From IMG/VR virus record IMGVR_UViG_3300034418_007369, positions 16,292 to 80,291 of that record: a stretch of DNA of 64,000 bases. One strand, 5' to 3'. A program made the position numbers and the translations under genes. Source of the DNA: a virus. A model generated the notes under the pieces. The model made no database searches. It worked only from the letters and a program-made list of their open reading frames with translations, and was not told the DNA's origin. This document shows, piece by piece, positions 1,148 through 31,505 of the stretch (the stretch's first letter is position 1; the number at the start of each line of letters is the position of its first letter).

Positions 1148-1163
1148 AACGATAGGACGATTG

Positions 1164-2228
1164 ATGATTAATTTGCAGACTCCAATTAATTCGCTTGGAT
1201 ATGGTGTCGCCGGATATAATATATTAAAAGAGCTTTTTGCTAGAGATGATTCAGTTGCTTTATATCCAATAGGAAAACCGGATCAAACGGATGACTTTAT
1301 AGCTAAAGCCATAAGCAATATATCAAACTTAAAATTAAACAGGTCGCACGTTAAAATATGGCATCAACATGACCTCTTTCAAAGAGTCGGCAACGGTAAG
1401 CATTTTGGATTTCCTATCTTCGAGTTAACCGAGTTCGACCAAAGAGAAAAAGTAAGCCTTCATCATTGTGACGAGCTATTGGTCTGTTCTAAATGGGCTT
1501 CTGAAATCGTCGATAACCAGACAGGAATCAAAGCCAGTGTTGTTCCGCTTGGTGTAGACACTAAAATATTCTATCCTAACAGCCAGTATCAGGTGCATAA
1601 TCCTTATAAAACAATCTTTTTTAATTGTGGGAAATGGGAAAAAAGAAAAGGTCATGATATTTTAGGGGAATGTTTCAATAAGGCTTTCACAAAATACGAT
1701 AATGTAGAACTGTGGATGATGTGCGACAATCCATTTTTAAAGCCAGAACAAAAAGAGTATTGGGAAAAACTTTACAAAACGTCGGGACTTGGCGATAAGA
1801 TCCGACTAATCCCTAGACAGCAACGGCATGAGGATGTTGCTAGGCTTATGAATATGGCTGACTGTGGAGTGTTTCCTGCGCGAGCAGAGGGGTGGAACCT
1901 TGAGTTGCTTGAGATGATGGCGTGCGGTAAACACGTTATAACCACCAACTACTCAGCTCATACAGAGTTCTGCTCCCCCGTAAATTCACGACTCATAAAC
2001 ATAGAAAACTTGGAAACAGCTTTTGACGGGGTGTTTTTTGATGGTAAAAAAGGACTTTGGGCAGAATTGTCTTGCGATCAAGAGAATGTCGTGATAGAAT
2101 ATATGAGAGATGTCCACAGGCTAAAACAAGGCGGGCAGCTCATGGTTAATAATAATGGAATAGAAACGGCTAATAAATTTTCTTGGAAGAACACTGTTGA
2201 TAAGCTATTGGAGGCTATAAATGAATAA
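1164..2228 (+). CDS. GT-B glycosyltransferase (GT4-like)
   Basis: 354 residues. The start is the ATG at 1164, with AGGA six bases upstream; the TTG at 1161 is less likely. The N-terminal half opens with a glycine-rich loop (LGYGVAGYNILKEL). The linker has VPLGVDTKIFYP, typical of GT4 enzymes, then FNCGKWEKRKGHD at the start of the nucleotide-sugar-binding half. The C-terminal donor motif region is PARAEGWNLELLEMMACGKHVITT, with the E-x7-E-type arrangement of retaining GT-B enzymes. It should transfer a sugar from an activated donor; substrate unknown. It stands alone among small unknown genes, far from the 27-45 kb sugar island, and overlaps the next gene by 8 bases. Confidence 0.85.
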   Translation: MINLQTPINSLGYGVAGYNILKELFARDDSVALYPIGKPDQTDDFIAKAISNISNLKLNRSHVKIWHQHDLFQRVGNGKHFGFPIFELTEFDQREKVSLHHCDELLVCSKWASEIVDNQTGIKASVVPLGVDTKIFYPNSQYQVHNPYKTIFFNCGKWEKRKGHDILGECFNKAFTKYDNVELWMMCDNPFLKPEQKEYWEKLYKTSGLGDKIRLIPRQQRHEDVARLMNMADCGVFPARAEGWNLELLEMMACGKHVITTNYSAHTEFCSPVNSRLINIENLETAFDGVFFDGKKGLWAELSCDQENVVIEYMRDVHRLKQGGQLMVNNNGIETANKFSWKNTVDKLLEAINE

Positions 2229-14785: not shown

Positions 14786-15197
14786 TGCGGCTCAATACGC
14801 TGCTGAACTTGTCTGTTTAAGAAAAAGAGAGAAAGAAAATTGCGGCAGTTTAGAGTTTAAGTTTTGGAACAGATCTCAAAAAGAAGAGTACCAAACTCAA
14901 ATACGTGTTGCTTCTAACTTGATAAGTAAATATAGTGAAAAAGCACTAATTAGATATCTAAATAGTCCAAGCGGTAACAATGTTTATGCCTTGGGCTTTC
15001 TACATAAAAGTAAAAAGTTCGCGTTAACACTTAGATTTGTTGAAAAGGGTGTAAAAGAAATACATGCCAAATTGAAAGAAGAGTCGAAGCGCGAAAAGAA
15101 AATAATCGAAGCCCCTAAAGGCGATTATAAACCAAAGAAATCAAAAGGCAAAAATAGCCTCTTTTCAAAAATAAGGAAGATAGATGGCAAAGGTTAA
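14724..15197 (+). CDS. Conserved-looking hypothetical protein upstream of recA
   Basis: 157 residues from the ATG at 14724, overlapping the previous gene by 62 bases; the recognisable part begins at CNAAQYAAELVCLRKRE (residue ~20), so the true start might be later at a non-ATG codon. The middle KFWNRSQKEEYQTQIRVA and LISKYSEKALIRYLNSP is helical. The tail is very basic (KGDYKPKKSKGKNSLFSKI). It ends 14 bases inside recA. A small DNA-binding or recombination accessory role is possible from context only. Confidence 0.6.
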   Translation: MNQKNSNILKYKSLSTGQPCNAAQYAAELVCLRKREKENCGSLEFKFWNRSQKEEYQTQIRVASNLISKYSEKALIRYLNSPSGNNVYALGFLHKSKKFALTLRFVEKGVKEIHAKLKEESKREKKIIEAPKGDYKPKKSKGKNSLFSKIRKIDGKG

Positions 15198-16257
15198 AGA
15201 CTGGAAGAAACAAATCACAGATAAGTATGGCGATATTCTTGTTTCTGGGACAAATGTTTTAAGTAATAGAAAAGATTATAAAGTATTATCAATTTCTCCA
15301 ATGCTAGATATCGCTCTGGGCGGGGGAATCAAAGAAGGTTCGTGGCTCATGCTTTCAGGCGATCCCAAGTGTGGTAAGACGACCACAGCGATGCAGTTGG
15401 CGGCGAACGCGCAGAAAGATGGTAGACATGTTATCTATCTTGATGCAGAGGGGCGACTCAAAGAAATGAACTTTGAAGTCCCAGAACTAGATCCAGAAAA
15501 TATGACAATCATTCAACCTAAAGACAAACCTATTCCTGCTGAAATATTTTTAGAAACAGCATACAAATACATGACTGATCCAGAATATCATGGGGCGGTT
15601 TTGATTGTTGACTCTATCTCGTCTTTGATTTCAGAGAAAGAACTAGACGGCGACTTCTCTCCCACTAGAGCTGGCCTACCTAAGATTCTCTCTATCTTCA
15701 CTAAAAAGATGGGACAGGTCTTACCTAATCAAAGAGGATTGGTGATACTGATTACCCATACTATCTCAAACACGTCTGGAATGGGCGCGTCTAAGATGGC
15801 TGACGGAGGTAGAAAGATTCAATATCAGGCGGATACTAGAATGGAAGTCAAAAGCGGTGGAGAGAAAATTCCAGCCGTCAAGCCTTGGACAGATGAAAGC
15901 GGCGAGATCATCGGGCAGCAGGTTAACTGGCGCATCCTCTGCTCGTCTATGGGATCGCCGGGCGGAAACTGTCAGAGTTTTATTCGTTATGGCGAAGGTA
16001 TCGACGAATGTCAAGAGTATCTACAGCTAGCTCAACAGCTTGCCCTTATCGACAGAAGTGGCGCTTGGTTCAAGCTCATATTCATGCTAGAAGATAAAAA
16101 ATTAATGAAGAAGCTAGAACCGGATTTAGATGTTGAAGACGAGACCGCATGTATTAAAGCCTTTCAGTTTCAAGGACAGCCAAAGGTGTATAATTTCCTG
16201 AAAGAAAATCCAGAGTGCATAAAGCTGTTGGCTAAATCAATTAAGGACATGCTATGA
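15184..16257 (+). CDS. recA: RecA/UvsX-type recombinase
   Basis: 357 residues. RecA core: LDIALGGGIKEGSW, Walker A GDPKCGKT at 59-66, a Walker B-type strand AVLIVDSISSLIS near residue 140, and the loop region ITHTISNTSGMGASKMADGG. It should form ATP-dependent filaments on single-stranded DNA and promote strand exchange and replication restart. Start ATG 15184 has AAGGAAGA upstream. The C-terminal ~100 residues have no obvious RecA C-domain, as in phage forms. It overlaps the nuclease gene by four bases. Confidence 0.9.
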   Translation: MAKVKDWKKQITDKYGDILVSGTNVLSNRKDYKVLSISPMLDIALGGGIKEGSWLMLSGDPKCGKTTTAMQLAANAQKDGRHVIYLDAEGRLKEMNFEVPELDPENMTIIQPKDKPIPAEIFLETAYKYMTDPEYHGAVLIVDSISSLISEKELDGDFSPTRAGLPKILSIFTKKMGQVLPNQRGLVILITHTISNTSGMGASKMADGGRKIQYQADTRMEVKSGGEKIPAVKPWTDESGEIIGQQVNWRILCSSMGSPGGNCQSFIRYGEGIDECQEYLQLAQQLALIDRSGAWFKLIFMLEDKKLMKKLEPDLDVEDETACIKAFQFQGQPKVYNFLKENPECIKLLAKSIKDML

Positions 16258-16685
16258 AAATAGAAATAGTAGGATTAGACGCAAGGGGCTACATATGGAT
16301 GCCGCTATCCGCAGCCGCCGAGAATGTTAATAGATCAAAACTTCATGAAAAAGCATACAAACTTATTGAAGAATTCTATCCGTATGATACGATATTGGAA
16401 GAAGTGACACTCCCCGGAAGCAAAGACCAATTTGGAGGAAAATCCCTTAGAGCGGACTTGTTTTTACCAGCTAGAAGAATTATAATAGAAGTTCATGGAG
16501 AGCAACATTATAAGTTTAACAAGTTCTTTTTTAAGAGCAAGCTAGACTTTTATAAAGCCAAAGCCAGAGACTCAGACAAAAGAGAGTGGTGCGAGTTGAA
16601 CGAAATAGAACTGATAGAATTAAATTATAATGAGGACATTGATGAGTGGAGAACAAAAATTAGAAGAGTTTCTTCTAGCGATTGA
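16254..16685 (+). CDS. Small EDxHD/PD-(D/E)xK-type nuclease
   Basis: 143 residues, ATGA-coupled to recA. The catalytic-looking core is RADLFLPARRIIIEVHGEQH (Asp and Glu on adjacent strands, then His), followed by DKREWCELNEIELIELNY, where the last strand and its Glu end the fold. This resembles the EDxHD branch shared by Vsr-like and phage endonucleases. Tight linkage to recA suggests a recombination nuclease rather than a selfish homing gene. A second protein with a similar core lies at 43202-43972. Confidence 0.65.
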   Translation: MKIEIVGLDARGYIWMPLSAAAENVNRSKLHEKAYKLIEEFYPYDTILEEVTLPGSKDQFGGKSLRADLFLPARRIIIEVHGEQHYKFNKFFFKSKLDFYKAKARDSDKREWCELNEIELIELNYNEDIDEWRTKIRRVSSSD

Positions 16686-22522: not shown

Positions 22523-23404
22523 GTGTCGCAGTTGATAGACCTAAAAAAAGACTTTGATTTGGGGAATAAATTTTTACTAGACGTAGCGTCAGAGCTATCT
22601 AACACTCTAGATGATAGTTATAGGGTTGTTATTAAGTATGATCTACAAGATTACAATATTCCAAAAGACGACAAGAAAAATATACTTTTTGCGCTGTCTA
22701 GAGAAACACATGAACTACCAAGATACACAGAAGACGAAAGGATTTTTCTTACGTTTCATAACTATGCTCCTTTAGACGCTTGGGGACATCCGATAAATCA
22801 TCCGAAAGTTGTGCCGCTGCCGCTTGGATTCTTTATAAATGATATGACCTCCAAGGTTGAAGAAATAAAGCCTCACGAAGATAGAGAATATGACTTCTGT
22901 TTCGTTGGACAGATACCGCATACCGGAACAAGAGATAAGTTTAAAAGATGTTTAGACAATATGCTAGAGCGCATAGGAAATAAATACAAATACTACGTCA
23001 AATATACTGAGTCTTTTGGTTGCGGCTTAGATCATCAAGAATATATTGACTTATTAAACAACTCAAAAATTTGCCTATGTCCGACTGGGGCATATAGTGA
23101 TGAGTCTTTTAGATTTTTTGAATCTATAGCTATGGGGGCGTTCCCTATGGTTGAAATGCTGCCAAGGTTTTGGTATTATGAACAGGCACCAATGTTTTTC
23201 GCTAAATGGCAATTCTTAGATAGCTTTCTAGAAAATTCTTTAAATTTTTTACGATCTGAAAATAAAAGAGTTGCACTTGAACAAATTGTAAACTACAATA
23301 ATACAATATTGAATACTGTCACCCTTTCTGGATTTTTGAAAAAGATAATTGATGAACAGCAAATACATACCAATAAATTGCAAGACCCACTTCAGTCTCC
23401 TTAA
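22523..23404 (+). CDS. Exostosin-like glycosyltransferase
   Basis: 293 residues from a GTG at 22523 after a strong AAGGGGG ribosome site. The middle has CFVGQIPHTGTRDKFKRCL and the donor half has SKICLCPTGAYSDESFRFFE, then SIAMGAFPMVEML, the pattern seen in exostosin-family and related GT-B transferases. The first ~100 residues are a mixed acceptor-side domain. It follows RmlA by two bases, suggesting use of a dTDP-sugar. The last 53 bases overlap the polymerase gene. Confidence 0.65.
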   Translation: MSQLIDLKKDFDLGNKFLLDVASELSNTLDDSYRVVIKYDLQDYNIPKDDKKNILFALSRETHELPRYTEDERIFLTFHNYAPLDAWGHPINHPKVVPLPLGFFINDMTSKVEEIKPHEDREYDFCFVGQIPHTGTRDKFKRCLDNMLERIGNKYKYYVKYTESFGCGLDHQEYIDLLNNSKICLCPTGAYSDESFRFFESIAMGAFPMVEMLPRFWYYEQAPMFFAKWQFLDSFLENSLNFLRSENKRVALEQIVNYNNTILNTVTLSGFLKKIIDEQQIHTNKLQDPLQSP

Positions 23405-24944
23405 AGGATTCTCTAATCCCGATAGACTAGCGAAACTGTGCGCTTCATATAACTATGGGGCGTGCGTTCTTGCTGATGTCAACACTCTTTCTGGCGCCGT
23501 GAACTTTCATCAGGCGTGTACGAAGAATGGCGTCAAGCCAATACTAGGACTAGACACAGAGCAATTCCTCCTAATTGCAAAGAATAAAGCTGGATGGCTA
23601 GACCTTATTAAATATTCTTCAGAAGAACAAGATATTGACACTCTGAAAAGAATAGCTGATAATGGCAACATTTTGTTTATAACAACAGAAGATAGTCCAG
23701 CCCAAAAGAAAATGTGGGGAAAGAATTATTTTTGTTATGATTATATTTCTGATGCGGTGTATTATTGCACCAAAGAAGAAGCAGAGCTACATAGAATCAT
23801 TCTGTGTTCTGGGATGAAAACCAGCATTCCGAAAGTTACGGCAAAGCTGCAAAAGGGAGAAGATTTTGAAAACAAACACTTCTTTACAAGTGAAGATTAT
23901 TGCTTAAAGCCGACAAGCAGAGTCACAGGTAATAAAAAATTATTTGACGCACTCGCTTCGTGCGAAGAGTATGAAATCACCGGAAAGCCAATGCTGCCAG
24001 AGTTTGATGTGCCTGAAGGGTTTGATAGTGATGAGTATCTTAAAGAGCTTTGTCGGCATGGTTGGAAATCTAAACTCGCCCCCGCTGGCAAAGTGTCCGA
24101 CCCAAAACAGAAAGAAATCTATCTGCAAAGAGTAAAGACTGAGCTTGAAGTTATCTTTAAGGCTAATCTTAGTGGTTATTTTTTGATCGTGCAAGATATT
24201 GTCAATTATGTTAAAAATCGTGGCTGGATCGCTGGTCCCGGTCGAGGATCTGCTGCCGGGTGTTTGATCTCTTATTTAGTTGGAATCACAGAAGTTGATC
24301 CAATTGAATTTGACTTACTCTTTGAGAGATTTTATAACGAGGGACGGAATACGGAAGATCACGTCTCGCTTCCAGATGTTGATATGGATGTTCCCGCAGA
24401 ACATCGAGACGAAGTAATTGACTACATTAAAGAAAAGTATGGAATTGATAAGGTCTCCCAGATGGTAACATTTGGTAAACTACAAGGTCGCGCGGCGATC
24501 AAAGAAGTTTTAAGAATCAATGATGCTGTATCTTTTTCTGAAATGAACGCTATTACAGATAGTATTCCAGATGAAGCTAAAATTTCTGACCAGCTAGAAC
24601 TCATGGAAGATAAGTCTATTATCAGATGGGCGCTAGAAAACGAATCAGAAGCGCTAAAGAGCTGGTGCTATTATGATGAAGAAGGAAACTTAGAAGGACC
24701 GCTATCAAGATATTTTGAACAAGCTATTAAAATTGAAGGAACAAATAAATCTCAGGGCAAACATGCTGCCGGTGTAATTATATCTAAACATCCACTAGCA
24801 GAGGTTTGTCCAATGGTTAAAGACAAGAATGGTAAAATGATTGCCGCGCTTGAGATGAATGACCTAGAGGCTATGGGTCATGTTAAGTTTGATGTTCTTG
24901 GAATTGACTTGTTAAGTAAAATTATGGAAATATGTGAGGATTAA
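23352..24944 (+). CDS. dnaE: DNA polymerase III alpha, N-terminal half (PHP and palm)
   Basis: 530 residues from the ATG at 23352 (TTG at 23349 is less likely). The first ~80 residues are a PHP-like domain, but its first motif reads KTHFSLLKG instead of HxH, so it is probably not metal-active. The palm has GPGRGSAAGCLISYL and all three catalytic Asp: Asp344 and Asp346 in PDVDMDVPAE, Asp514 in VKFDVLG. The gene ends 16 residues after the last one, where the fingers should begin. The rest is encoded at 25850-27391. No intein sequence is seen at the break. Confidence 0.9.
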   Translation: MNSKYIPINCKTHFSLLKGFSNPDRLAKLCASYNYGACVLADVNTLSGAVNFHQACTKNGVKPILGLDTEQFLLIAKNKAGWLDLIKYSSEEQDIDTLKRIADNGNILFITTEDSPAQKKMWGKNYFCYDYISDAVYYCTKEEAELHRIILCSGMKTSIPKVTAKLQKGEDFENKHFFTSEDYCLKPTSRVTGNKKLFDALASCEEYEITGKPMLPEFDVPEGFDSDEYLKELCRHGWKSKLAPAGKVSDPKQKEIYLQRVKTELEVIFKANLSGYFLIVQDIVNYVKNRGWIAGPGRGSAAGCLISYLVGITEVDPIEFDLLFERFYNEGRNTEDHVSLPDVDMDVPAEHRDEVIDYIKEKYGIDKVSQMVTFGKLQGRAAIKEVLRINDAVSFSEMNAITDSIPDEAKISDQLELMEDKSIIRWALENESEALKSWCYYDEEGNLEGPLSRYFEQAIKIEGTNKSQGKHAAGVIISKHPLAEVCPMVKDKNGKMIAALEMNDLEAMGHVKFDVLGIDLLSKIMEICED

Positions 24945-25160
24945 ATGAATGCTACAAAAGAAGAATATATGTCTGTGATTTTTTCTGGTTGCAGTATTGA
25001 CTATAAAGATATTACATTTTGTAATTTGGCTAATCACTATAGAAGATTGGCAAGATCAAATGAATATCAAGTATGGTCAGACAGACAAAACGAATATCAC
25101 CTATTTAAAAATATCGAAGATGCTGTTGATAAGTTTATTGAACTAAAGAAAAGGAAGTAA
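24945..25160 (+). CDS. Small protein inserted between the two polymerase genes, unknown function
   Basis: 71 residues, starting at the base after the dnaE-N stop. It has two Cys (FSGCSIDYKDITFCN), a basic helix NLANHYRRLARSNEY, then a WSDRQNEYHLFK and a helical end (AVDKFIELKKRK). No homology to polymerase domains or intein motifs is visible. Its position suggests it either arrived with the split or helps the two halves associate, but neither can be shown. Confidence 0.6.
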   Translation: MNATKEEYMSVIFSGCSIDYKDITFCNLANHYRRLARSNEYQVWSDRQNEYHLFKNIEDAVDKFIELKKRK

Positions 25161-25161
25161 C

Positions 25162-25857
25162 ATGGCGAACTATAGAGATATTATTGTTTTTGACTTTGAG
25201 ACCGGCGGCGCTAATCCATATACGTGTCAGCCAACTCAAATCGCGGCTGTGGCTATCCACGCTAGAAAGCTAGAGCTACAGCCCGGAGGCGTGTTTAACA
25301 GCGAGATTCGCCCTATTATCGACGACGATGAGGCCATTAAAGCGGGAGTCGGCCCGTTGGAGGAAGAGGCTCTGCGGGTAACGCGCAAAAACCGTGACGA
25401 CCTAGCAAAAGCACCTTTGCCCAAAACAGTATGGAAAAAGTTTGCTCAGTTTTGCGACAAATATAATTTTAAGAAAACTAATTATTATGCACCTATCGCT
25501 GCTGGCTATAATATCAATGGCTTTGATATGCCTATTGTGGAGAGAATGTGTCAACAATATGGTCCAACTCATGCAAAGAATGGCAGGCAGGGAATCTTTA
25601 ACCCTATTTTTACCATTGATGTAATGCAACATATTTACTGCTGGTTTGAAAACAATACAGAAGTAAAGGGATATGGTATGGATTACTTGCGCGACTATTT
25701 TGGAATGAGTCAGGCTAGTAAGGATAATGCTCACGATGCGTTGCAAGACGTTAAGGATACCGCTAATATCATGATTAAGTTCATGAAATTGCAAAGAACA
25801 TTGCTACATAAAGTTAAATTTGAAAAAACATTTGCGAACGGGGATATTTATGTCTAA
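25162..25857 (+). CDS. DnaQ-like DEDDh 3'-5' exonuclease (proofreading)
   Basis: 231 residues. DEDDh residues: Asp11 and Glu13 in VFDFETGGAN (ExoI), Asp in YNINGFDMPIVER (ExoII) and His/Asp in NAHDALQDVKDTANI (ExoIII). These coordinate two metals for 3'-5' cleavage. It lies between the two polymerase halves, whose alpha subunit has no exonuclease of its own, so it is the natural proofreader. The end overlaps the second polymerase gene by eight bases. Confidence 0.88.
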   Translation: MANYRDIIVFDFETGGANPYTCQPTQIAAVAIHARKLELQPGGVFNSEIRPIIDDDEAIKAGVGPLEEEALRVTRKNRDDLAKAPLPKTVWKKFAQFCDKYNFKKTNYYAPIAAGYNINGFDMPIVERMCQQYGPTHAKNGRQGIFNPIFTIDVMQHIYCWFENNTEVKGYGMDYLRDYFGMSQASKDNAHDALQDVKDTANIMIKFMKLQRTLLHKVKFEKTFANGDIYV

Positions 25858-27391
25858 ATTTGACATTAATAATTTTGAAGATGAAGAAGTTTGGGATTTG
25901 ATTTGCGAAGGACGCACAAAGGGCGTTTTTCAACTTGAGTCTAGCCTTGGTAAGCATTGGGCTAAAGAAGTCAAACCCAGAAGCATCAGTGAATTAGCGG
26001 CTCTTATTTCGTTGATTCGTCCCGGCTGTTTGAAGGCTTACACAGATGGTAAATCCATGACACAGCACTATGCGGATAGAAAAAAGGGAACTGATGCTGT
26101 TGATTACCCAGATGATTCTTTGGAGCCTATTCTAAAAGGAACCTATGGTGTTTTGGTATACCAAGAGCAAAGCATGAAAATCGCCCAGCAACTAGCTGGG
26201 TTTGACCTTAAAGAAGCTGATTCGCTTCGTAAGGCTATTGGTAAAAAGAAAGCTGAACTCATGGAAGAAATGAAACAGGTCTTTATGGATGGCGCCGAAA
26301 AGCAGGGGATTATCAAGAAGGAAGTGGCGGGAGAGATTTTTTCATGGATCGAGAAGTCTAACCGCTACGCCTTCAACAAAAGTCACGCTGTTTCATATGC
26401 TATTGATGCATACTGGAGCGCGTACTGTAAATGTCATAGATTAGAGAGGTTTTACGTGAGTTACATGAATCGCTCTGACCGTAAGCCAAAGCCTGAGATT
26501 GAGCTAAAACAGCTTATCATGGATGCTAAGATGCATGGGCTAGACACCTATCCGCCAAGGCTTAATCACATGCACACAAATTTTCTACATGAGAATGGTA
26601 AAATTTATTTTGGTATGAGGCACATTAAAAATGTAGGCACGAAAGAGTGTGATAAAATTGAAGAATTAAAACAAACAGAAGATTTGTCTTTGTTTACTTG
26701 GATGGATTGTCTTATCAAGATTGTTCACCGTACCAAGATCAACAAGCGAGCGGCAATTGCTATGATTTCTGTTGGTGCGTTTAATGGCAAGAACAATAGA
26801 GAGTCTCGCCAGAAAATGCTGTATGAATATGATAGCTGGAATAATCTTTCTGCAAGAGAAAAAGATGCCATCGCTGATAATTACAAAAGTAATTTAACTT
26901 TGGCTCAGTGTGTAGACCTGCTATCAGACTGGGTTAAGATTAATTCTAGAAGGGCGCAAGCGATAGAGGACATCAAGCAGTCTCTCATTTCGCCATTCTA
27001 TAGCCTAGATGACGATCCCGCCTCTATTGCAGATTATGAAATTAAATTAATGGGGTGTGCCTTGACATGCAGTAAGGCAGATTCTATAAATATTTCTACA
27101 AATATGTGCAAAGATGTGACACAGGGTACTATAAGAGGTAAGGTAAATCTTTCTGTGATGATTAATTCTATCCGTACCTATAAAACTAAAAAGGGAAAGA
27201 ATCCCGGCCAAGAGATGGCTTTTTTGTGTATTGAAGACGCGAGCGGCGAACTGGATTCCGTTACAATTTTTCCAGAAGCATTTATAAAATATAAAGATTT
27301 ATTGATAGAAAGAAACACTGTCTTCATAGATGGTGAGGTTTCTAAGAGGGATAAAAATTCCATCGTTGTTAATAAAGTTATACAAGTTTGA
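25850..27391 (+). CDS. dnaE: DNA polymerase III alpha, C-terminal half (fingers to OB fold)
   Basis: 513 residues. The start is the ATG at 25850 in GATATTTATG; the in-frame codon at 25820 lies inside the exonuclease gene. It starts NNFEDEEVWDLICEGRTKG, then VFQLESSLGKHWAKEV and LIRPGCLKAYTDGKSM, which continue the alpha chain straight after the palm. GVLVYQEQSMKIAQQLAGF and the NRYAFNKSHAVSYAI element follow. The end (~430-510) is an OB fold (GKVNLSVMINSIRTYK, EDASGELDSVTIFPE). No tau-binding or clamp-binding tail follows it. Confidence 0.9.
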   Translation: MSKFDINNFEDEEVWDLICEGRTKGVFQLESSLGKHWAKEVKPRSISELAALISLIRPGCLKAYTDGKSMTQHYADRKKGTDAVDYPDDSLEPILKGTYGVLVYQEQSMKIAQQLAGFDLKEADSLRKAIGKKKAELMEEMKQVFMDGAEKQGIIKKEVAGEIFSWIEKSNRYAFNKSHAVSYAIDAYWSAYCKCHRLERFYVSYMNRSDRKPKPEIELKQLIMDAKMHGLDTYPPRLNHMHTNFLHENGKIYFGMRHIKNVGTKECDKIEELKQTEDLSLFTWMDCLIKIVHRTKINKRAAIAMISVGAFNGKNNRESRQKMLYEYDSWNNLSAREKDAIADNYKSNLTLAQCVDLLSDWVKINSRRAQAIEDIKQSLISPFYSLDDDPASIADYEIKLMGCALTCSKADSINISTNMCKDVTQGTIRGKVNLSVMINSIRTYKTKKGKNPGQEMAFLCIEDASGELDSVTIFPEAFIKYKDLLIERNTVFIDGEVSKRDKNSIVVNKVIQV

Positions 27392-27402
27392 AAAGGATTA
27401 TT

Positions 27403-27729
27403 ATGAATAATTGCTCTTTTTTAGGCAAGCTCAAAGAGCCTGTCTTTTCTACAGTATCTAATGATGTTGATATGGTTAATTTTGTACTTGAAGTTGAAGA
27501 ATATAGAAAAAATAAATCTGGTCAAAAAACAAGACGTGTTGAAAATCTAACATTTGAAGCATGGCACACCGCCGCTATTACCCTGAGAGAAAAATTAAAT
27601 GTTGGCGATCTCGTTCTGGTAGAATGTACAGCCAGAAGCAAAAGAGACGAAGATGATTTTTGCTACTTTAGAGTCAATAGTTTCAAGATTTTTAACAAAG
27701 AAAGATACTCCACGCAATCGGAAGACTAA
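27403..27729 (+). CDS. ssb: Single-stranded DNA-binding protein (OB fold)
   Basis: 108 residues from the ATG at 27403; AAGGATTATT precedes it, while the TTG at 27388 has no ribosome site. It reads as a small OB fold: NNCSFLGKLKEPVF, DMVNFVLEVEEYRKNKSGQ, then NLTFEAWHTAAITLREKLNVGDL and a final CYFRVNSFKIF strand. These match the order of bacterial SSB strands, and the C-terminal DDF-type tail is absent. It should coat unwound DNA for the split polymerase just upstream. Confidence 0.75.
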   Translation: MNNCSFLGKLKEPVFSTVSNDVDMVNFVLEVEEYRKNKSGQKTRRVENLTFEAWHTAAITLREKLNVGDLVLVECTARSKRDEDDFCYFRVNSFKIFNKERYSTQSED

Positions 27730-29381
27730 TGAGAAAAAAGAAGATATTGTTTGTTTCTGAGGCTTCGTGGCTTAGTACCGGATATTCCGTATATACCAAG
27801 GAAGTTCTTAGTAGACTAAATCAGATAGAAGAATTTGAAGTTGCTGAACTAGCCTGCTATACGGACGCAGCAAATCCAAATATAAAAAAAACACCTTGGA
27901 AGGTATACGCCAATAAACCATTACCAGACGATCCAAATCTAAATATTTACAAATCTAACACAATTGCTCAATTTGGTGAATTATCATTTAATAGCGTACT
28001 GCTAGACTTTATGCCAGATATTGTGATGGATATTAGAGACTGGTGGATGCTAGAGTTTGAACAGCGCTCGCCTTTTAGAGACATGTTTCACTGGGCGATT
28101 ATGCCAACGGTAGACGCATCGCCACAAAATATGCAATGGATAAATACGTATGACTCTGCGGATTCCGTGTTTGCTTATTCTGAATTTGGAAGAGATACGA
28201 TGAGTCGTCAATGCGACACGATAAAGTTTGTTGATGTGGCGTCTCCGGCGGCCAGTAAGGTATTCAGTCCAGTAGATGATAAGCGCCAGCATAAGATTAA
28301 CATGGGCGTGTCCCCAGATAGTATTATAGTGGGAACCGTAATGAGGAATCAAAAAAGAAAACTATATCCAGATCTGTTTTCTTCATTTAGAAAATTTTTA
28401 GATATTGCAAATAAAGATAACGTGTTTTTATACGCGCACACCTACTATCCAGATGTTGGATGGGAGATTCCACAGCTAATACAAGAAAACGGTCTTTCTA
28501 ATCGCGTACTGATGACATATAAGTGTAAGAAGTGTGACACTATCAGTGTTGACTTTTTTCAGAATTCTGTTCAGGTATGTAATAAATGTAAGAGTTTGTC
28601 TAATCAGCTTGTTGGCATAGGCAATTCAATAGAAGAAAATAGACTCTCGCAGATTTACAATCTGTTTGATATTTATGTCCAATACGCAAACAGCGAAGGC
28701 TTTGGTATGCCGCAGCTTGAAGCGGCGCACTGCTCTCTTCCTGTTATTTCTACTTATTATTCTGCCATGCAGTCTGTAATAGACAATATTGGTGGAATCG
28801 GAATAGAGCCAATTTCATACTATAAAGAATGTGAAACGGGATGCAACAGGGCGGTTCCAGATAATGAGCTTTTTGTTCAGGCTTTACTAGACCTAATTTC
28901 ACGCCATGAAAACGATTCTAATTATTTGGTTGATCTGGGTAGGACCATTATGGAAAAAGCCAAACATCACTATACTTGGGATGCAGCTGCCGACAAGTGG
29001 GCTGCTAGATTTAAAGAGGTGGAACTAAAAGACCCAAAAGAAACTTGGCTGTCTCCATCAAAAATTAGAGTACCAAAAACTGAACTACCCGCCTCACTTA
29101 AAAACGCCAAAGAAATAACGGATTTTATTTTTAATAGTGTTTTGTGCAAGCCCGAATGGATCGGTAATCATATTTGGAGAAGGATGTTAAGAGATTTGAC
29201 ATTTGGCTATAAGTGCGAAAGTTCTAATAAAGAGTTTTACTTTAATGAGTCTCATAACAAATCTCAAAAATCAAGTTTGCCCTTTTCTCCTCAAGATGCA
29301 CTAAAAGAAATGTTAAACTTTAGAAATCAGATGAACTCTTGGGAACAGGCCAGATTAAGAAAAATCGGAGCAATAAAATGA
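27729..29381 (+). CDS. GT-B glycosyltransferase with an embedded zinc ribbon
   Basis: 550 residues. It starts ILFVSEASWLSTGYSVYTKE, a GT4-type loop, and the donor half has YVQYANSEGFGMPQLEAAHC, the retaining GT-B signature. Between them lies a four-Cys ribbon, Cys266 and Cys269 (YKCKKC) with Cys284 and Cys287 (VCNKCKS), inserted right after the first strand of the donor domain. The last ~140 residues have no family match. The ribbon may bind protein, nucleic acid or the acceptor. Starts in TAATG with SSB and ATGA-couples to the next transferase. Confidence 0.8.
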   Translation: MRKKKILFVSEASWLSTGYSVYTKEVLSRLNQIEEFEVAELACYTDAANPNIKKTPWKVYANKPLPDDPNLNIYKSNTIAQFGELSFNSVLLDFMPDIVMDIRDWWMLEFEQRSPFRDMFHWAIMPTVDASPQNMQWINTYDSADSVFAYSEFGRDTMSRQCDTIKFVDVASPAASKVFSPVDDKRQHKINMGVSPDSIIVGTVMRNQKRKLYPDLFSSFRKFLDIANKDNVFLYAHTYYPDVGWEIPQLIQENGLSNRVLMTYKCKKCDTISVDFFQNSVQVCNKCKSLSNQLVGIGNSIEENRLSQIYNLFDIYVQYANSEGFGMPQLEAAHCSLPVISTYYSAMQSVIDNIGGIGIEPISYYKECETGCNRAVPDNELFVQALLDLISRHENDSNYLVDLGRTIMEKAKHHYTWDAAADKWAARFKEVELKDPKETWLSPSKIRVPKTELPASLKNAKEITDFIFNSVLCKPEWIGNHIWRRMLRDLTFGYKCESSNKEFYFNESHNKSQKSSLPFSPQDALKEMLNFRNQMNSWEQARLRKIGAIK

Positions 29382-30454
29382 AAATATTGTATATAGGACA
29401 CTACAAGGATGGAACGGGTTGGGGAGATGCCGCCAAGAATAATATTATAGCTTTATCTAAAGCCGGTGTTGATGTTGTGCCTAGAGCCATTTCTTACAAC
29501 GAAAAAGATTCTGAGCCAGATGAAGAAATAAGTAAATTAGAACAAAAAAGCTCCGAAGGTTGCGATATCTGTATTCAGCATACGCTTCCGTCTAATTATG
29601 TTTATGATTCTAATTTTAAAAACATCGGATATCTAGCCACGGAAAGTAGCGATTTTGTAGATACGGCTTGGCAGAAAAATATAAATATGATGGATGAACT
29701 TTGGGTTCCGTCTGAATACGTCAAAAATTCTTGCGTAAAAAGCGGTGTCACAATACCCATCAAGATCGCCCCGCACTGTCTTAATATAGATTCATATTTA
29801 AAAGCAGAAGACGGCGCGAAAATTTCACAACTGCTAAACACTTTTAACTTTGCTTTTGTGGGAGAATTTATAGAGAGAAAAAATATACAAGCCTTAATTA
29901 AAGCGTTCCATACAGAATTTCATCCAAAAGAAAATGTAAGCCTGCTTATTAAGACTTCTGGTGTTGACATTAGTGTTGTAAATAATCTAATTCAAGCAAC
30001 CAAAAAGGGCCTAAAACTAAGAGAAAAATATAAGGAAGATATTGTTATATCGGGAAAACTAGAAAAAAAAGACTATCTTTCAGTGCTCAAGCAGTGTCAT
30101 GCTTTTGTCATGCCAAGCAGAGGCGAGGGTTTTTGTATTCCGGCGCTAGAAGCGATGGCTCTTGGCGTTCCCGCCATCTACACAAAAGGAACGGCCATGT
30201 CTGAATTTTGCATAGGCTCGGCTGTTGAAAGCCATAGCGTAGCATGTTTTGGCGGCATGGGATCACTGCCAAACATATACACCGCAAATAGTAACTGGCA
30301 AGAAATTAATATTAGAGACCTTCAAGCAAAAATGAGAAACGCTTATACAAAAGGAACAGACATAGACAAAAAAGAAAGATGTCAAAATAAGGCAAAAGAA
30401 TACTCTCACGAAAATATTGGAAAGCTATTTAAGGAGTTGTTGAATGACAAGTAG
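29378..30454 (+). CDS. GT-B glycosyltransferase
   Basis: 358 residues from the ATG at 29378, overlapping the previous stop as ATGA; the in-frame start at 29339 lies inside the previous gene. N-terminal ILYIGHYKDGTGWGDAAKN is a GT-B entry loop, NFAFVGEFIERKNIQALIKA opens the donor half, and PSRGEGFCIPALEAMALGVP is the donor-binding signature. The pattern fits GT4. Sits second in a run of three transferase genes. Sugar and acceptor unknown. Confidence 0.85.
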   Translation: MKILYIGHYKDGTGWGDAAKNNIIALSKAGVDVVPRAISYNEKDSEPDEEISKLEQKSSEGCDICIQHTLPSNYVYDSNFKNIGYLATESSDFVDTAWQKNINMMDELWVPSEYVKNSCVKSGVTIPIKIAPHCLNIDSYLKAEDGAKISQLLNTFNFAFVGEFIERKNIQALIKAFHTEFHPKENVSLLIKTSGVDISVVNNLIQATKKGLKLREKYKEDIVISGKLEKKDYLSVLKQCHAFVMPSRGEGFCIPALEAMALGVPAIYTKGTAMSEFCIGSAVESHSVACFGGMGSLPNIYTANSNWQEINIRDLQAKMRNAYTKGTDIDKKERCQNKAKEYSHENIGKLFKELLNDK

Positions 30455-31505
30455 AGCCAGTCAAAGATCAGTTAGAAGCATATTAAGGTCCGCCCACAGA
30501 CCCAAAAAACTTAATATATTAACATTTTGCGCACATGAAAGATATGAACAAAATCTTTGTAAGACTGGTCATAATTTTTATTCAGTTGGCGTTGGTAAAA
30601 CTTGGGACACCGATTACGGAAAAATACCAGAAAACTATCACGTCATTAATAGTATTCCAGATTACTTAGATTTTGATTTGATATTGGCGCACACGGACGA
30701 CAACAGAGTGGCCGCTGTTTACAGCCATCTGTCTGGAGACGATAAAAAAAATCTAAACAGAACTCATATCCCGATTTTGAGGCACAATCATGTTCTTCCA
30801 GATGTTAGATATGACATAGAGATGCAAAAAAAAGCAGCAGTAAATCCAATTTTTAATTTCTTTTCTTTTATTTCAAACTATTCTAGGGATCGGTGGGGCT
30901 TTAGCAAAGATAATTCATTAGTTATCGAGCATGGTATTGATACAGATTTCTGGAATCCGGGATCAGAAAAAAGAGACAATGTTTGTCTTTCTGTTGTAAA
31001 CGATTGGCCCAATAGGGATTGGTGCTGTGGATGGAATGTTTGGAGGCATACGGTTGGAATGAAGGGCGGATCTGGAACCAAGACAGACCCTTGGCAGTGC
31101 GATCTTCCAATTAGAGTGTTTGGCAAGAGTCCCGGATTATCTGTTCCGGCTGAGTCAACAGAGCATCTAAGAGAGATTTACCAAAAGTCAAGAATATTTT
31201 ATAACACATCTATACATTCGCCTGTTCCAACTGTATTATTAGAAGCTATGGCGTGTGGATGCGCAATTGTTTCAACCGCAACATGTATGATACCAGAATT
31301 TATAAAACACGGCCAAAATGGATTAATATCAAATGATGTCAATGAGCTAAAATCTTATCTAAAGATGCTTATGGAAAACGAAAACATTGCCAAAAAACTA
31401 GGACAAAACGCAAGAAAAACAATTGAAGAAAAATTTAGCCTAGACAAATTTGTTAACAATTGGAATAAAACTTTTGACTTGGCGACGACTCTATACAAAG
31501 GATAA
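30444..31505 (+). CDS. GT-B glycosyltransferase
   Basis: 353 residues, starting 11 bases inside the previous gene (GTTGAATG). Acceptor half has LTFCAHERYEQNLCKTGHNF and NYSRDRWGFSKDNSLVIEHG. Donor half has PVPTVLLEAMACGCAIVSTA, the retaining GT-B signature, followed by NGLISNDVNELKSYLKML and the typical C-terminal ARKTIEEKFSLDKFV. A Trp/Cys-rich segment near residue 190-205 (NRDWCCGWNVW) is unusual and may bind the acceptor. Third of three linked transferase genes. Confidence 0.82.
   Translation: MTSRASQRSVRSILRSAHRPKKLNILTFCAHERYEQNLCKTGHNFYSVGVGKTWDTDYGKIPENYHVINSIPDYLDFDLILAHTDDNRVAAVYSHLSGDDKKNLNRTHIPILRHNHVLPDVRYDIEMQKKAAVNPIFNFFSFISNYSRDRWGFSKDNSLVIEHGIDTDFWNPGSEKRDNVCLSVVNDWPNRDWCCGWNVWRHTVGMKGGSGTKTDPWQCDLPIRVFGKSPGLSVPAESTEHLREIYQKSRIFYNTSIHSPVPTVLLEAMACGCAIVSTATCMIPEFIKHGQNGLISNDVNELKSYLKMLMENENIAKKLGQNARKTIEEKFSLDKFVNNWNKTFDLATTLYKG

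What the first reader, a model, noticed from the sequence alone, without database searches (positions are those of the whole stretch)
23352..27391. DNA polymerase III alpha split between palm and fingers, with an exonuclease and a small gene inserted
All three catalytic Asp (344, 346, 514) are in the first gene, which stops 16 residues later. The fingers to OB fold are in a second gene 905 bases downstream. Between them lie a 71-residue unknown gene and a DEDDh exonuclease. No intein motif is visible at either end, so the halves should work as two chains. The cyanobacterial split DnaE is joined by a split intein; this one looks different. The PHP domain has lost its HxH start, which fits the separate exonuclease. 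The inserted genes may have moved in as a unit.
Basis: partly seen in the sequence, partly recalled or inferred. Interest (0 to 1): 0.75.

Follow-up and report, generated by a model that had tools for sequence, protein, structure and literature searches.

The report
Two-chain phage replicative DNA polymerase
A large group of uncultured phages makes its only recognisable DNA polymerase as two separate proteins, cut at one fixed point and encoded around a proofreading-type nuclease and a small unknown protein, so this core enzyme must assemble from pieces without protein splicing.

Summary
The N gene (PHP+palm, 23349-24944), a 71-residue gene (S71), a DEDDh exonuclease (EXO) and the C gene (fingers to OB, 25850-27391) form one compact operon followed by an SSB gene. 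I found 102 distinct viral-contig loci with the N, S71 and EXO genes (N 55-100% identical); in every one that also reaches the C half, N and C are in separate ORFs broken at the same point, and none is unbroken. The break replaces a 4-11 residue variable linker of ordinary DnaE. N ends 4-10 residues past its last conserved motif and C starts 1-6 residues before its first, leaving no room for an intein; no intron was found. Catalytic residues are invariant, dN/dS is 0.02-0.06, and no PolA or PolB was found in eight contigs of 80-148 kb. The best reading is an intein-free two-chain replicase with EXO as proofreader; the role of S71 is unknown. The gaps between these genes collect HNH/EndoVII genes in relatives, and three relatives broke the C half again at the cyanobacterial intein site with a split intein and a Vsr-like nuclease. 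Split phage polymerases are known: a new variant, not a new kind.

The parts
23349..24944 (+). N half of DNA polymerase III alpha (531 aa from TTG; ATG at 23352): PHP (degenerate), thumb/palm with all three catalytic Asp (343, 345, 515 in TTG numbering), ends ...GIDLLSKIMEICED*
   Evidence: D343/D345/D515 in 102 of 102 loci
24945..25160 (+). S71, 71-aa conserved small protein, starts directly after the N stop (TAAATG); predicted alpha-beta4-alpha fold; function unknown
   Evidence: pLDDT 88; 78 of 78 loci of the S71 scan lie beside N; no Pfam or PDB match
25162..25857 (+). EXO, 231-aa DEDDh 3'-5' exonuclease (D11, E13, D122, H191, D196), probable proofreading subunit
   Evidence: conserved in all loci that reach these positions
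25850..27391 (+). C half of DNA polymerase III alpha (513 aa, ATG at 25850, overlapping the EXO end by 8 bases): fingers, (HhH)2, OB fold; starts MSKFDINNFEDEEVWDLI
   Evidence: AF2 pLDDT 89.3, Foldseek to Pol III alpha over about 530 columns
27388..27729 (+). SSB-like gene, next gene of the same operon in most relatives
   Evidence: PF00436
24942..25849 (+). Break zone between N and C: N stop, S71 and EXO; replaces a 4-11 residue linker of unbroken DnaE; the slots inside it host HNH/EndoVII and other genes in relatives

Best explanation
The phage's replicase is a C-family DNA polymerase (DnaE type) made as two polypeptides that assemble non-covalently at the palm/fingers boundary. N carries the catalytic Asp and a dead PHP; C carries fingers, (HhH)2 and OB. 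Both, with EXO (a DnaQ/epsilon-like proofreader acting in trans) and S71, come from one translationally packed operon. The gene was broken once, in the ancestor of the clade, inside the short variable linker between palm and fingers, most likely by insertion of mobile or recombined genes of the homing-endonuclease kind that still enter the same slots in relatives. SHOWN by computation: the fixed break, open and conserved frames, catalytic residues, purifying selection, no room for an intein, no intron, no second polymerase found. INFERRED: assembly of the two chains, activity, EXO as the subunit, the cause of the break, any role of S71.
For: N and C separate in every family locus that covers both, none unbroken. 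Break point constant: N ends 4-10 aa after LLSKIM, C starts 1-6 aa before FDIN in nearly all. In the unbroken DnaE that could be measured, N531 and C1 equivalents are 4-11 residues apart, mostly 7. Catalytic D343/D345/D515 and GRGS in 102 of 102. dN/dS N 0.035-0.057, C 0.017-0.057, EXO up to 0.054, S71 mostly 0.1-0.2. Split clade monophyletic, SH-aLRT 100. One PF07733 and no PolA or PolB in 8 contigs of 80-148 kb. C half folds confidently alone and matches Pol III alpha. No intron family. Homing-type genes in the slots of relatives. Biochemical precedent: gp43A/gp43B of Aeromonas phage 25 co-purify and have polymerase activity; split Aeh1 NrdA is functional (PMC2988022).
Against: No experiment and no complex model; the tools predict single chains only. 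No isolate of this clade among 50,697 phage records. The family contigs are probably incomplete, so another polymerase could lie outside them. The cause of the break is not recorded in the window, which has no endonuclease in the zone. Scans used probes from the family and kept the best 80 hits, so a close unbroken sister could have been missed.
Confidence: 0.85

Rival explanations
1. S71 is not a passenger but an obligate assembly or bridging subunit that replaces the lost covalent link, so the replicase is a stable four-chain complex (N-S71-EXO-C). This is an extension of the main reading, not exclusive with it.
For: S71 lies beside N in 78 of 78 loci of its own scan and in every EXO-scan locus; under purifying selection; confident small fold.
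Against: Lower conservation than EXO or C; no detectable relation to any known subunit; position next to N could be linkage only.
Confidence: 0.35
2. S71 and EXO entered dnaE together as one cassette, and this caused the break, rather than a homing endonuclease that was later lost (a rival on origin only).
For: The two genes are the only constant content of the break zone.
Against: In relatives other genes sit between S71 and EXO and between EXO and C, and no S71-EXO pair was seen outside this locus, so neither a donor nor a cassette boundary is visible.
Confidence: 0.4
3. The halves are joined after translation by an unrecognised trans-splicing element, as in cyanobacterial DnaE.
For: Three relatives do carry a split intein, at another site in the C half.
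Against: N ends 4-10 residues after, and C starts 1-6 residues before, the conserved polymerase sequence in nearly all loci; intein models hit only the second break of L013.
Confidence: 0.03
4. The mRNA is spliced or bypassed so that N and C are read as one protein.
For: None found.
Against: No Rfam intron in the window stretch or in seven relatives; the genes abut or overlap with about 0-20 bases between them in many loci, leaving no room for a ribozyme core.
Confidence: 0.02
5. A decayed or misassembled polymerase gene.
For: Broken genes are often decay or assembly error.
Against: Same structure in 102 distinct loci, invariant active site, dN/dS far below 1.
Confidence: 0.01

Closest known systems
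Split gp43A/gp43B family B polymerase of Aeromonas T4-like phages 25 and 44RR, and split NrdA of Aeh1 (PMC2988022)
   Same: Phage replication enzyme encoded as two chains without an intein, linked to homing endonucleases; the two chains shown to assemble and work
   Different: Family B polymerase or RNR in a few phages; here a C-family polymerase, fixed across a whole clade, with EXO and S71 always in the break
Minimal split Pol III alpha of group 2.2 jumbo phages (PMC7824862)
   Same: Intein-free two-protein version of the Pol III alpha catalytic core in phages
   Different: There a minimal core, genes far apart, split between NTP-binding and Mg/template-binding parts, beside a family B polymerase; here full length (PHP to OB), one operon, split at palm/fingers, no other polymerase found
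Split Pol III alpha of Lactobacillus phages Satyr and ATCC 8014-B2, Tenacibaculum phage Larrie, Cellulophaga phage phi13:1 and Staphylococcus phage CF9
   Same: Pol III alpha in two nearby genes, with a NUMOD3 protein between them in the Lactobacillus phages
   Different: Break lies before the PDxD catalytic motif (N residue about 336-348) or near residue 410, not at 531; separate branches of the tree
Cyanobacterial split DnaE with Npu/Ssp-type split intein
   Same: DnaE in two genes; the second break of L013, L168 and L227 is at the same YxFNK(C)|SHA site
   Different: The window break is about 176 residues upstream and has no intein
Fractured genes with split inteins and free-standing endonucleases (Dassa et al. 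2009, cited in PMC6892783 and PMC10448857; original not held)
   Same: Arrangement of the extra break in three relatives: IntN gene, Vsr-like nuclease gene, IntC gene
   Different: Not the arrangement of the window's own break

Membership tests
C-family DNA polymerase (DnaE/Pol III alpha) | PHP, palm with three catalytic Asp, fingers, (HhH)2, OB | tested here: met
   the domains are all present but on two chains; OB below the Pfam cut-off yet seen in the fold model
C-family DNA polymerase (DnaE/Pol III alpha) | Single polypeptide across palm and fingers (usual, not strictly defining) | tested here: not met
   N and C separate in all family loci that cover both
Cyanobacterial-type split DnaE | Break at the YxFNK|S site in the fingers | tested here: not met
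   NF007079 spans the window break and ends near C residue 176
Cyanobacterial-type split DnaE | Intein halves at both ends | tested here: not met
   Tails of 4-10 and 1-6 residues; no intein family in N or C
Homing-endonuclease split phage enzyme (gp43A/B, Aeh1 NrdA type) | Coding region of a known enzyme interrupted at one point by other genes, both parts open and conserved | tested here: met
Homing-endonuclease split phage enzyme (gp43A/B, Aeh1 NrdA type) | Homing endonuclease in the break | tested here: inconclusive
   Absent in the window; HNH or EndoVII-type genes in the N/S71, S71/EXO or EXO/C slot of a minority of relatives
Homing-endonuclease split phage enzyme (gp43A/B, Aeh1 NrdA type) | Two chains assemble into an active enzyme | not testable with these tools
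   Needs co-expression; only single-chain folds available
DnaQ/epsilon proofreading exonuclease | RNase H-like DEDDh motif | tested here: met
   PF00929 52 bits, phrog_192 polymerase exonuclease subunit, DEDDh residues conserved
DnaQ/epsilon proofreading exonuclease | Binds alpha (PHP) and proofreads | not testable with these tools
   Only genetic linkage and the degenerate PHP support it

The most novel reading that the evidence does not exclude
The clade's replicase is an obligate four-polypeptide machine in which a previously unknown small protein (S71) holds a naturally divided C-family polymerase together and couples it to a trans proofreader; three members went further and rebuild the C half by protein trans-splicing.
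Probability: 0.3. Interest if true: 0.75.

Novelty: new variant of a known kind. Interest (0 to 1): 0.6.

Why it matters
It shows that a full-length bacterial-type replicative polymerase can stay stably divided between palm and fingers, as two chains, across a diverse phage clade and apparently as the phage's only polymerase. It offers a natural two-part Pol III for structure work and engineering, a new conserved small subunit candidate, and a clear case of a core replication gene whose break zone acts as a landing site for homing-type genes, with a second, intein-based break seen in three relatives.

Tried and rejected
Intron or RNA element in the zone: Rfam found nothing credible. Family for S71: none in Pfam or NCBIfam, only a weak PHROG hit of unknown function; PDB by sequence and by fold found nothing; the viral fold library gave only uncharacterised small phage proteins (TM 0.64, E 0.018). 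Host or prophage: EXO has no relative in 84,980 genomes; N found bacterial dnaE and one 3.6-kb phage-like contig binned with a Flavobacteriales MAG (L256), too weak to name a host. Nearest named phages by RNR (KLEP7, RHph_I1_18) carry no Pol III alpha. No DNA_pol3_beta-type clamp in the own contig. Same break in named phages: of 60 spread over 1,349 records, 58 match in one piece and two are split elsewhere.

Full report
WHAT IS THERE. The window is bases 16292-80291 of an 80.3-kb IMG/VR contig. From 23349 on, four genes follow each other with 0-4 bases between them or overlapping by 8: N (531 aa), S71 (71 aa), EXO (231 aa), C (513 aa), then an SSB-like gene. N has the PHP and DNA_pol3_alpha families, EXO RNase_T, C the finger and HhH families plus a sub-threshold OB. 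N aligns to E. coli alpha to residue 563, C from 591. The PHP HxH reads NxK.

IT IS A FIXED STATE OF A WHOLE CLADE. Scans of 2.9 million viral contigs with N, C, S71 and EXO gave 238 loci with N, S71 and EXO that reduce to 102 distinct ones. N and C were in separate ORFs in every family locus holding both; the five single-ORF cases flagged were distant relatives at about 20-30% identity. N is 55-100% identical to the window's. N always stops 4-10 residues after LLSKIM; C starts 1-6 residues before FDIN with few exceptions. In the ordinary DnaE that could be measured the two points are 4-11 residues apart, usually 7, so nothing conserved is lost. A tree of joined halves against unbroken and otherwise split polymerases makes the clade one group with SH-aLRT 100 and a long stem (quick method, some long outgroup branches).

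IT IS UNDER SELECTION AND SEEMS TO BE THE ONLY POLYMERASE. D343, D345, D515 and the GRGS motif are present in 102 of 102 loci; the exonuclease DEDDh residues in all that reach them. dN/dS for N and C is about 0.02-0.06, EXO 0.05 or lower, S71 mostly 0.1-0.2 (dS is saturated for far pairs). Eight contigs of 80-148 kb each hold one Pol III palm and no PolA or PolB match; all may be incomplete. The C half alone gives a confident model (pLDDT 89.3) that matches Pol III alpha structures over about 530 columns with TM about 0.7.

HOW IT PROBABLY WORKS. With no room for inteins, no intein family at the ends and no intron, the two chains most likely assemble non-covalently. This is not far-fetched: split gp43A/43B of Aeromonas phage 25 co-purify and polymerise, and split NrdA of Aeh1 is fully active (PMC2988022). 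EXO probably proofreads in trans: DnaE enzymes take their proofreading exonuclease from a separate epsilon subunit bound to the PHP, and PHP sites are often degenerate where that is so, although the literature finds the link imperfect (PMC3919608). S71 has a confident small alpha-beta fold without known relatives and lies beside N in all 78 loci of its own scan; a bridging or accessory role is a hypothesis.

HOW IT AROSE. The gaps between the genes are landing sites. In 102 loci I counted 45 gaps over 150 bases: 2 between N and S71, 12 between S71 and EXO, 27 between EXO and C, and 4 inside C. Contents include HNH and endonuclease VII-like genes, FkbM and other methyltransferases and a family 2 glycosyltransferase. 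Three distinct loci (L013/L181, L168, L227) have the C half broken again at NRYAFNK(C)|SHA, the cyanobacterial DnaE site, with a split intein (TIGR01445 over cut-off in L013) and a free-standing Vsr/NUMOD3-type endonuclease gene between the halves. Two Patescibacteria dnaE genes have an in-frame insertion at the same site. So breakage by mobile genes is active in this family, but the first break itself no longer shows its cause.

KNOWN OR NEW. Split phage Pol III alpha is known in other forms: minimal split versions in jumbo phages (PMC7824862), and Lactobacillus, Tenacibaculum/Cellulophaga and Staphylococcus phages that break at other points. Of 60 named phages spread over 1,349 matching records, 58 match in one piece. 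I found no report of a break at the palm/fingers boundary with EXO and S71 in it; the paper library is open-access only. Hence 'new variant of a known kind'.

LIMITS. Counts of distinct loci remove identical sequences only, so close variants are counted.

Noticed in passing
L013:3191-6020 (also L168, L227): C half of the polymerase broken a second time at the cyanobacterial DnaE intein site, with split intein halves and a Vsr/NUMOD3-type endonuclease gene between them; the polymerase is then in three genes.
   Followed up: partly
window 16254-16685: 143-aa Vsr/EDxHD-like homing endonuclease gene directly after a UvsX-like recombinase gene (15184-16257).
   Followed up: no
window 1161-2228, 22523-23404, 27729-31505: Many glycosyltransferase-like genes interleaved with replication genes; methyltransferase and glycosyltransferase genes also enter the polymerase operon in relatives.
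   Followed up: no
L254:176-2610: Ribonucleotide reductase of Pseudaeromonas phage KLEP7, the nearest named relative of the window's RNR (49%), is annotated as two genes.
   Followed up: no
L228:5321-5863: 544-base insertion near residue 55-65 of the C half without a long plus-strand ORF and without an Rfam match; nature unknown.
   Followed up: partly
L265, L270: Patescibacteria dnaE genes with an in-frame insertion of about 420 residues at the same intein site; probably a cis intein.
   Followed up: no
L256: 3.6-kb contig binned in a Flavobacteriales MAG carries N-S71-EXO-C; a weak hint at the host.
   Followed up: no
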